Source: Glycomyces sp. L485 (GTDB taxonomy: Bacteria > Actinomycetota > Actinomycetes > Mycobacteriales > Micromonosporaceae). Taken from it: DNA of 64,000 bases. How positions within the stretch are numbered: position 1 is the stretch's first letter; each line of letters starts with the position of its first letter. This document shows, one piece after another, positions 47,697 through 48,864 of this stretch. A program made the position numbers and the translations under genes. The notes under the pieces are model-generated. The model saw nothing but the letters and a program-made list of their open reading frames with translations, was not told where the DNA came from and made no database searches. The stretch lies in the NCBI RefSeq assembly GCF_022548875.1, contig NZ_JAKZEW010000005.1, forward strand, positions 62,001 to 126,000. Direction: 5' to 3'.

Positions 47697-47814
47697 ATGC
47701 TCACCGAGCACCTGCCGATCTACAAACTCCGGTCCGGACCGAACAACTTGAGCTGCGCCTGCCCGACCACGAGGAGTTCGGCGCGCTCGCCGACCTCGCC
47801 GCCGAGGGACAGAG
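47697..47814 (+). pseudogene. N-terminal remnant of a GNAT acetyltransferase
   Basis: MLTEHLPIYKLR in one frame and TEQLELRLPDHEEFGALADL in the next frame together match the start of RimJ/RimL-like GNAT proteins, separated by a one-base frameshift near 47733. After AAEG the homology stops and tRNA flanking sequence begins, so at least three quarters of the gene is missing. Confidence 0.6.
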
Positions 47815-47892
47815 GAGACGCCCTAGGCCCCGTGTGCAAAGCCTGAATCATGCGCTACAGTATTCATCGTTCGCGGGGTAAACCCGTGAAAT

Positions 47893-47968
47893 GCGGACGT
47901 AGCGCAGTTGGTAGCGCGACACCTTGCCAAGGTGTAGGTCGCCGGTTCGATCCCGGTCGTCCGCTCCA
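47893..47968 (+). tRNA. tRNA-Gly (anticodon GCC), CCA encoded
   Basis: The body (47893-47965) is identical to the copy at 41605; here CCA follows the discriminator T. Normal 8-base D-loop. It belongs to the tandem duplication. Confidence 0.95.
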
Positions 47969-47971
47969 GGG

Positions 47972-47996
47972 GCCCGGCGGCAGCGCCGGGCTTTTT
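47972..47996 (+). terminator. Terminator after tRNA-Gly copy
   Basis: An 8-bp perfect GC stem (47972-47979 with 47984-47991, loop GCAG) followed by TTTTT. Confidence 0.85.
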
Positions 47997-48033
47997 CGTT
48001 GTTCGGGTGGTTCGCGGGGTGAACCCGTGAAAT

Positions 48034-48134
48034 GCGGACGTAGCGCAGTTGGCGGTGTTGTTGGCAGCACTTCGTGCTGGTGCGACACCTTGCCAAGGTG
48101 TAGGTCGCCGGTTCGATCCCGGTCGTCCGCTCCA
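48034..48134 (+). tRNA. tRNA-Gly (GCC) variant with 33-nt D-loop, possibly pseudo
   Basis: Acceptor, anticodon and T arms are identical to the two normal copies and CCA is encoded. The D-stem GCGC (48043-48046) now pairs with GTGC (48080-48083, one G-T pair) across a 33-base loop instead of 8. Within that loop CAGCAC (48065-48070) and GTGCTG (48074-48079) form a 6-bp hairpin with loop TTC. It may be a dead copy or a structured tRNA variant. Confidence 0.75.
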
Positions 48135-48137
48135 GGG

Positions 48138-48162
48138 GCCCGGCGGCAGCGCCGGGCTTTTT
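48138..48162 (+). terminator. Terminator after variant tRNA-Gly
   Basis: An exact copy of the 47972 terminator: 8-bp stem, GCAG loop, TTTTT tail. Confidence 0.85.
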
Positions 48163-48225
48163 CGTTGTTCGGGTGGTTCGCGGGGTGAACCCGTGAAATG
48201 CGGGTGCCTCTCTCCGTCGGTTCCC

Positions 48226-48864
48226 CTATCCTTCAAGGTGCTTCCAGCGGGCGCCCATCTCCTCCTCGGTCGGGGCCGATCCGGGCAGCGGCTCGGCCCC
48301 CGGCGCTCGCAGCGCCTCCAGATGCAGCTCCAGGCACCGTAGGCGCAGTTCGCGGGTCCGCTCGGCCCCGCCCAGGTTGATCGAGGCGACCGACTCGGTC
48401 ACCAACGCCAAGTCCCCGTTCTCGATCTCGGCGCGCAGCAGTCCGGCGTCCTTGAGACGGTCGATCAGCGCCCGGTTGAATGCGTCGGCGGCCACCGCCG
48501 CCTCGAACAGGTCGGGCGACGGTGTGAACGTCCCGGCGAGTCTCGTCGTGATCGACGGCGTATCGGCCTCCACGACCTTCCGCAGGAACGTGCAGAAGGC
48601 ATCCCAAGGGTCGCCCTCGGTCTCGACCGCCTCGCGTACCAGCTCCGTGTAGCGGGACAGTCCGTCGCTGCACAGCTTCCGCAGCAGGTCCTCCTTGCTC
48701 GGATAGCGCCGGTACAGTGCGCTGATGCCGACGCCGGCCAGCTTGGCGACGTCCGCGATCGGCGCCTCCGGGTCGGTGATGAAGACCTCGCGGGCGGCTT
48801 CGAGGATGAGCTTGTCGTTGCGGGCGGCCTGGGCCTTGCGCCCGCCCATCGGCTTGTCGGCCAT
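48226..48864 (-). CDS. TetR-family regulator
   Basis: A 212-residue regulator. The HTH (LILEAAREVFITDP to KLAGVGISALYRRYPSKEDLLRKL) is typical; the C-terminal helical domain (about 75-200, FLRKVVEADTPSITTRLAG) would bind a ligand. TATGAT lies 6 bases before the ATG, indicating a leaderless mRNA, and a palindrome fills the promoter spacer, so autorepression is likely. No obvious efflux or enzyme target lies next to it. Confidence 0.87.
   Translation of the reverse strand: MADKPMGGRKAQAARNDKLILEAAREVFITDPEAPIADVAKLAGVGISALYRRYPSKEDLLRKLCSDGLSRYTELVREAVETEGDPWDAFCTFLRKVVEADTPSITTRLAGTFTPSPDLFEAAVAADAFNRALIDRLKDAGLLRAEIENGDLALVTESVASINLGGAERTRELRLRCLELHLEALRAPGAEPLPGSAPTEEEMGARWKHLEG

What the first reader, a model, noticed from the sequence alone, without database searches (positions are those of the whole stretch)
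48034..48134. tRNA-Gly copy with a 33-nt D-loop containing its own hairpin
This gene keeps the acceptor, anticodon and T arms identical to the two normal tRNA-Gly(GCC) genes in the window, keeps encoded CCA and a terminator, yet its D-loop has grown from 8 to 33 bases. The insertion is not random debris: the D-stem still closes (GCGC with GTGC) and the added bases form a 6-bp hairpin with a TTC loop. It is either a decaying duplicate or a structured tRNA derivative that could be processed into a small RNA or have a non-translational role.
Basis: partly seen in the sequence, partly recalled or inferred. Interest (0 to 1): 0.75.

Follow-up and report, generated by a model that had tools for sequence, protein, structure and literature searches.

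The report
Conserved tRNA copies with extra hairpin
Soil bacteria of the genus Glycomyces carry, next to an ordinary glycine tRNA gene, a second copy with an added RNA hairpin that evolution has kept almost unchanged, and some carry a proline tRNA copy built the same way, which suggests a tRNA-like RNA with a job that is not yet known.

Summary
Window 48034-48134 is a tRNA-Gly(GCC) copy whose other arms equal those of the normal gene just upstream. After G18-G19 a 29-nt stretch replaces 4 nt and can form a 6-bp hairpin. It is not debris. The window is Glycomyces: 15 of 22 genomes carry the inserted copy (one more has a remnant), up to 4 in tandem, in both halves of the genus tree. On that tree the hairpin stem has 0.17 changes per site, the linker beside it 4.2, the intergenic spacer 2.8. 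The same insertion at the same position occurs in tRNA-Pro(CGG) copies: three near-complete, one a remnant in the window's own genome. Across Gly and Pro the hairpin shows compensatory changes, though few. Samples of 278 other genomes of the family and 386 of the order (overlapping) gave no convincing further case. The promoter-like motif of the normal gene is missing before every inserted copy that could be checked, so read-through is inferred. Best reading: a genus-specific, selected tRNA paralogue with an accessory arm, probably chargeable, probably not mainly for decoding. The function is inferred. Whether the insert enlarges the D-loop or forms a separate arm is unresolved.

The parts
47893..47968 (+). 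normal tRNA-Gly(GCC) directly upstream, with encoded CCA; preceded by the promoter-like motif GCGCTACAGT
   Evidence: motif counts
47968..47995 (+). terminator-like hairpin between normal and inserted copy
48034..48134 (+). tRNA-Gly(GCC) copy with the inserted arm (acceptor 48034-48040/48124-48130, U73 48131, CCA 48132-48134)
48043..48046 (+). D-stem 5' strand GCGC
48055..48058 (+). candidate D-stem 3' strand 1 (GTGT here, GTGC in most relatives): would give a normal 8-nt D-loop and a separate extra arm
   Evidence: RNAalifold consensus; pair counts
48059..48064 (+). variable linker plus the G before the stem; the first five positions are hypervariable (4.2 changes/site)
48065..48079 (+). conserved hairpin CAGCAC-TTC-GTGCTG (6 bp, 3-nt loop)
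48085..48101 (+). anticodon arm with GCC at 48092-48094
48107..48123 (+). T arm
48134..48161 (+). terminator-like hairpin, same sequence as at 47968
48163..48203 (+). leftover of a further tandem unit (leader plus the first bases GCGG)
   Evidence: sequence

Best explanation
It is a tRNA paralogue with an accessory arm, maintained by selection in the genus Glycomyces. A tandem copy of tRNA-Gly(GCC) (and, in some genomes, a copy of tRNA-Pro(CGG)) carries a 25-nt net insertion right after G18-G19, able to form a conserved 6-bp hairpin at the D-arm or between D-arm and anticodon arm. Shown here: age, position, conservation, some compensation, recurrence in two isoacceptors. Inferred: it is transcribed by read-through of the terminator after the normal gene, is processed and can be charged with glycine (the bases recalled as GlyRS determinants are kept in the window copy), but the bulky arm makes it a poor decoder, so it works mainly outside ordinary elongation; the hairpin would be the handle by which an unknown protein or RNA recognises it.
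For: 15 of 22 Glycomyces genomes carry it, 20 copies in all: in 13 directly after the normal gene, in G013 beyond a run of N, in G015 on a contig that begins inside the copy. Carriers lie in both groups of the phosphoketolase tree. Parsimony: hairpin stem 2 changes in 12 sites, loop 1 in 3, following GTGC 0 in 4, adjacent linker 21 in 5, spacer 2.83/site. The Gly-trained model R1 also hit tRNA-Pro(CGG) copies with the same insertion (G003, G011), the joint model R2 a third (G015). Hairpin pairs 2 and 5 change on both sides, pair 3 in the G015 Pro copy. Normal and inserted copies share changes on both sides of the arm, yet the arm stays in the second copy only. For non-decoding: the promoter-like motif precedes 21 of 21 first normal copies and 0 of 19 inserted copies examined, 17 with readable upstream sequence; 7 of 13 fully readable genomes have body changes or damage while the hairpin still pairs.
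Against: No expression, processing or charging data. 5 of 22 genomes have the locus without the copy, and G009, G017 and G021 have broken ones, so it is dispensable. In 6 of 13 fully readable genomes the body equals the normal gene, which also fits a decoding tRNA, although gene conversion blurs this. Compensation is modest: the number of pairs changed on both sides is not above shuffles (1, reached in 405 of 500; 2, reached in 118 of 500), and pair 5 in Gly may be one event. The hairpin is in the best RNAfold structure of 6 of 11 copies only, and the window copy's best fold is not a cloverleaf. The promoter motif was defined by me from the alignment and is also absent before most copies of the other normal tRNA-Gly(GCC) gene and before the second normal copy of G021 (22 of 31 normal copies have it, one locus counted twice), so its absence does not prove lack of a promoter. 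No partner gene was identified.
Confidence: 0.5

Rival explanations
1. It is an ordinary decoding tRNA-Gly that happens to tolerate a D-arm ornament: the third GCC gene of the genome, useful for dosage.
For: Acceptor, anticodon, T arm, U73 and CCA are intact in the window copy; anticodon kept in all copies read; amplified to 3 and 4 copies in G001 and G014; body identical to the normal gene in 6 of 13 genomes.
Against: No promoter motif like that of the first copy; acceptor, anticodon-stem, T-stem or T-loop changes in G002, G008, G009, G011, G012, G014; it does not explain why the hairpin itself is so conserved.
Confidence: 0.22
2. It is a non-functional duplicate: an old hairpin-bearing copy kept alive by gene conversion with its neighbour and by tandem-array turnover.
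For: Concerted evolution and a dynamic array with copy gains, losses and remnants; broken copies in G009, G017, G021; no copy at the locus in five genomes.
Against: Conversion with the normal gene cannot maintain the insert, since the normal copy has none; the hairpin changes about 20-fold less than its linker and the Gly and Pro versions both keep the pairing.
Confidence: 0.17
3. DNA-level role or origin in integrative elements: the extra 3' half acts as a spare attachment site for integrases that use tRNA genes.
For: tRNA-Pro(CGG) looks like a frequent integration site in these genomes, judged by eye from duplicated tRNA 3' ends and shared flanks; in G015 the inserted Pro copy itself is followed by such a flank. 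No integrase was confirmed by a family search.
Against: No integrase among the 12 reading frames tested with Pfam around the Gly locus (four of them gave no match above Pfam's cut-offs); the conserved hairpin lies outside the 3' half that integrases use.
Confidence: 0.05
4. Decoy against an enzyme that cleaves or modifies tRNA-Gly and tRNA-Pro in the D-arm or anticodon.
For: Same anticodon and body as the target tRNA, altered D-arm, patchy retention.
Against: No such enzyme was sought here; low inferred expression suits a decoy poorly.
Confidence: 0.06

Closest known systems
canonical bacterial tRNA-Gly(GCC) (Rfam RF00005)
   Same: acceptor, anticodon and T arms, U73, G18-G19, CCA in the window copy; passes the tRNA model
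   Different: 33 nt between the D-stem strands instead of 8, with a conserved hairpin
non-proteinogenic tRNA-Gly of staphylococci used for cell-wall bridges (recalled, not looked up)
   Same: a duplicated tRNA-Gly thought to serve outside ribosomal synthesis
   Different: those lose G18-G19 and weaken EF-Tu contacts (recalled); here G18-G19 and mostly the T-stem are kept and an arm is added
tRNA-Sec and other non-canonical natural tRNAs reviewed in PMC7609411 (12 of 31 passages seen)
   Same: departures from the standard cloverleaf in the D-arm or other arms
   Different: the passages seen describe a 6-bp D-stem, a variable arm and arm losses; none describes an extra hairpin at the D-arm
engineered tRNA-aptamer fusions (PMC7590224, 12 of 42 passages seen)
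   Same: a hairpin tag grafted on a tRNA
   Different: those seen are artificial and mostly in the variable arm; this one is natural and at the D-arm

Membership tests
tRNA (RF00005) | scores above the family's gathering score with acceptor, anticodon and T stems | tested here: met
   51.5 bits against 29
tRNA (RF00005) | normal-sized D-loop closed by a 4-bp D-stem | tested here: inconclusive
   33-nt loop if strand 48080-48083 closes, 8-nt loop plus extra arm if 48055-48058 closes; both supported
tRNA-Gly(GCC) isoacceptor | anticodon GCC, U73, G1-C72, C2-G71 (determinants recalled) | tested here: met
   window copy; C2-G71 is lost in the four G014 copies
tRNA-Gly(GCC) isoacceptor | charged with glycine and used at GGC/GGU codons | not testable with these tools
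   needs acid-gel and polysome data
staphylococcal non-proteinogenic tRNA-Gly | loss of G18-G19 (recalled) | tested here: not met
   G18-G19 invariant in the 11 rows of A1
pseudogene | no part of the insert evolves slower than neighbouring sequence | tested here: not met
   hairpin stem 0.17 against linker 4.2 and spacer 2.83 changes/site
dispersed palindromic repeat | many copies across the genome | tested here: not met
   pattern GCAGCRCTNCGYGCTG: 25 matches in 22 genomes, 20 of them these tRNA copies; the reversed control pattern gave 16, so the other 5 are at chance level
glycyl T-box regulon partner | a T-box specific for glycine in the genome | tested here: not met
   only one T-box-like match (33.1 bits, below the cut-off of 93), before a gene that I read as ileS from its sequence, no family search made

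The most novel reading that the evidence does not exclude
Glycomyces holds a class of accessory-arm tRNAs, built at least on tRNA-Gly(GCC) and tRNA-Pro(CGG) by the same D-arm insertion, which are charged but routed by their extra hairpin to a dedicated partner outside the ribosome, for example as amino-acid donors in cell-wall or peptide synthesis. This would be a tRNA fold with five arms, or with a hairpin-bearing D-loop.
Probability: 0.25. Interest if true: 0.88.

Novelty: new variant of a known kind. Interest (0 to 1): 0.7.

Why it matters
Bacterial tRNAs are held to keep the canonical cloverleaf; the start of the abstract of PMC11551756, seen in the listing, says all known ones do. A natural tRNA copy with an added, selected hairpin, found in two isoacceptors and kept across most of a genus, is a possible counter-example to test. 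If it is charged but not decoded, it would mark a new use of aminoacyl-tRNA; if it decodes, it shows how much extra RNA the ribosome accepts at the D-arm. It also shows that an annotation tool can misname such genes.

Tried and rejected
Rejected readings: assembly artefact (same insertion in 15 assemblies); dispersed repeat; glycine T-box partner; spread by phages or plasmids (no record covers 80% of the query, listed rows at most 52%); presence in other genera (278 of 300 family genomes lie outside the genus, 9 of them match at E 0.01, best 32.3 bits; 386 of 397 order genomes lie outside the genus, best 32.8 bits, weak matches in many). Of these weak loci seven were run through ARAGORN and gave no tRNA; six were also read by eye; the others were not examined. 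ARAGORN's tRNA-Glu(ttc): the triloop has no U33, and the hairpin sits inside a tRNA-Gly.

Inconclusive: which D-stem 3' strand is used. The upstream strand pairs 98.1% of cells with some variation, the downstream one is invariant and pairs 100%; a third fold with a second small hairpin pairs 98.7%; energies favour the upstream strand by 1.6 to 5.3 kcal/mol. The nucleotide tree was out of register and was not used. A stricter pattern matched 11 of 22 genomes. Weak R2 hits: ARAGORN found no tRNA in L109, L111, L112, L113, L115, L119, L121, L122, L123; G001:C12 and G012:C40 were read by eye; L125 and L128 were fetched and not examined; many lower hits were not looked at. ARAGORN also gave nothing for L091, L108 and L118, which hold inserted Pro copies, so its blank is weak evidence. 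Paper searches listed no report of such a tRNA; two returned no paper, 75 was swamped by DNA D-loops; the library holds open-licence papers only.

Full report
What is there. The window copy at 48034-48134 is a tRNA-Gly(GCC) in which the four bases TAGC after TTGG (G18-G19) are replaced by 29 nt. The other 69 positions equal the upstream gene. Rfam's tRNA model accepts it at 51.5 bits. ARAGORN calls it tRNA-Glu(ttc), with the added triloop as anticodon. The copy follows the normal gene in tandem, each with the same terminator-like hairpin, and a leftover of a further unit follows at about 48163-48203.

Where else. The window lies in G000:C108 of a 4.4-Mb genome. A pattern for the arm found 15 stretches in the public genome collection, all in Glycomyces records (14 genomes); an earlier, longer pattern found none. 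In the genus, 15 of 22 genomes have the inserted copy, 20 copies in all, with 3 in G001 and 4 in G014. In 13 it is read directly after the normal tRNA-Gly(GCC); in G013 a run of N and in G015 a contig end lie between, and the 5' part of these two copies is unreadable. G017 keeps the hairpin but has lost the 3' half. G009 has a further hairpin-bearing insertion in the T-loop. G021 keeps only the start of the D-arm and is not counted. G003, G004, G018, G019 and G020 have the locus without the copy. In G006 (92% complete) no tRNA-Gly(GCC) gene was found.

Age. A protein tree of the neighbouring phosphoketolase (21 genomes, midpoint root, several nodes below 70% support, one partial sequence) splits the genus in two groups, with the inserted copy in both. 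One ancestral origin with five losses on this tree is the simplest history.

Selection. On that tree (14 rows, one partial) the five linker sites have 21 changes and the 12 stem sites 2, both belonging to one compensated pair. The loop has 1 change in 3 sites, the four bases after the stem 0, and the spacer between the two genes 2.83 changes/site over 64 columns in 13 genomes. A site permutation of linker against hairpin gave p = 0.0002; it treats sites as exchangeable. Gene conversion with the normal neighbour cannot explain the conservation, because the neighbour lacks the insert. Conversion or concerted change is visible: in G002 both the normal gene of the array and the inserted copy have C16 and G59 (states also seen in the outgroup genome G033), while its other tRNA-Gly(GCC) gene has T16 and G59, and all other Glycomyces copies readable at these sites have T and T. 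In tRNA-Pro, pair 28-42 is T-A in both the normal and the inserted copy of G003, and C-G in the inserted copy of G011 and in the G011 normal gene on another contig. The arm survived this.

A second isoacceptor. A model trained on the Gly copies only (R1) also hit G003 and G011 at other places, at 31.6 and 35.3 bits. These are tRNA-Pro(CGG) genes with the same insertion: TTGG-CAGTGC, linker, CGGCAC-TCC-GTGCCG. In G003 the normal tRNA-Pro(CGG) lies directly upstream with a terminator-like hairpin between. In G011 only a tRNA-Pro 3' half lies upstream, in line with an integrated element. The joint model R2 found a third in G015 with CGACAC-TTC-GTGTCG, 2.1 kb downstream of the normal gene and with several further changes. 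A 5'-truncated remnant with CGACGC-TTC-GTGTCG lies in the window's own genome, 8.5 kb from its normal tRNA-Pro. So 4 of 22 genomes show it, in both groups of the tree; other remnants may have been missed. Over Gly and Pro rows, pairs 2 and 5 of the hairpin change on both sides and all 84 hairpin cells pair. The number of such pairs is not above the shuffles (118 of 500 reach it), while cells paired, cells changed on both sides and the covariation score exceed all 500; related rows can do so without structure. Pair 3 changes in the G015 Pro copy, which was not in that count.

Fold. RNAalifold prefers a normal 8-nt D-loop followed by a separate arm between D-stem and position 26. The upstream strand varies and stays paired in all rows read there but G017; the downstream strand never varies in the Gly copies. 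In the Pro copies the upstream strand is intact in two and lacks one pair in G015, and the downstream strand would need a bulged base (my reading). Free RNAfold puts the hairpin in the best structure of 6 of 11 Gly copies, and for several, the window's included, the best structure is not a cloverleaf, while the normal gene folds as one. I leave this open.

Expression. A -10-like motif GCG[CA]TA[CAG][AG][GC]T, which I defined from the alignment, lies before 21 of 21 first normal copies of the array (one per genome, G006 missing) and before 0 of 19 inserted copies (G017 not examined, 17 with readable upstream sequence). The motif is also missing before most copies of the other normal tRNA-Gly(GCC) gene and before the second normal copy of G021, so other promoters exist or read-through serves normal genes too. 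The general sigma-70 scan found nothing in 47700-48300, not even for the normal gene, and so says nothing. Read-through of the terminator is the likely route, which is inferred.

Body of the copies. Of 13 genomes readable over the whole gene, 6 have a body identical to the normal gene at 69 positions (G000, G001, G005, G007, G010, G016), 3 differ at one site (G008, G011, G012), G014 at two in all four copies, G002 at three, and G009 and G017 are broken. The readable 3' parts of G015 and G013 differ at none and one site. Several of these changes break pairs of the acceptor, anticodon or T stem or alter the T-loop. The hairpin pairs fully in all 14 rows of A2.

Scope. R1 over 300 family genomes (278 outside the genus) and R2 over 397 order genomes (386 outside) gave nothing outside Glycomyces above 32.8 bits; the two samples overlap, are partial and use strict filters. 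Full-length Gly inserts score 77.7 to 85.9 with R1, Pro copies 35.5 to 53.5 with R2; a Gly copy cut by a contig end scores 29.0 with R2, so a truncated or diverged relative elsewhere could be missed. Phage and plasmid records gave only partial matches, at most 52% of the query in the listed rows (14 of 30 records listed); three of the four phage places are annotated tRNA-Gly.

Judgement. That the feature is real, old and selected is well supported. What it does is not. The most economical reading is a tRNA-derived RNA whose accessory hairpin is the selected part, with a body identical to the normal tRNA in about half of the fully readable carriers.

Noticed in passing
G009:C3:73202-73282 and downstream (L061): The inserted tRNA-Gly copy has a second insertion in its T-loop, with its own possible hairpin CCAGC-TTC-GCTGG of the same style.
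   Followed up: no
L129-L158, L159-L161: tRNA-Pro(CGG) looks like a hot spot for integrated elements in Glycomyces: many genomes have duplicated tRNA 3' ends kilobases apart with shared flanks.
   Followed up: partly
L070 about 1501-1700 (G000:C113:26037-26201): A T-box-like leader (33.1 bits, below the cut-off of 93) precedes a gene that I read as ileS.
   Followed up: partly
spacer upstream of the inserted copy, e.g. L063, L065, L068: A G-rich leader GCCCGGG..CGGGG....TCGGGG directly before the inserted copy is shared by many species, but not by G000 or G002, where it resembles the leader of the normal gene.
   Followed up: no
G008 and G013 inserted copies: Both have the same T-to-C change in the anticodon stem although they are not neighbours in the tree.
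   Followed up: no
window 48034-48134: ARAGORN names the gene tRNA-Glu(ttc); public annotations may carry a similar misnaming (not checked).
   Followed up: no
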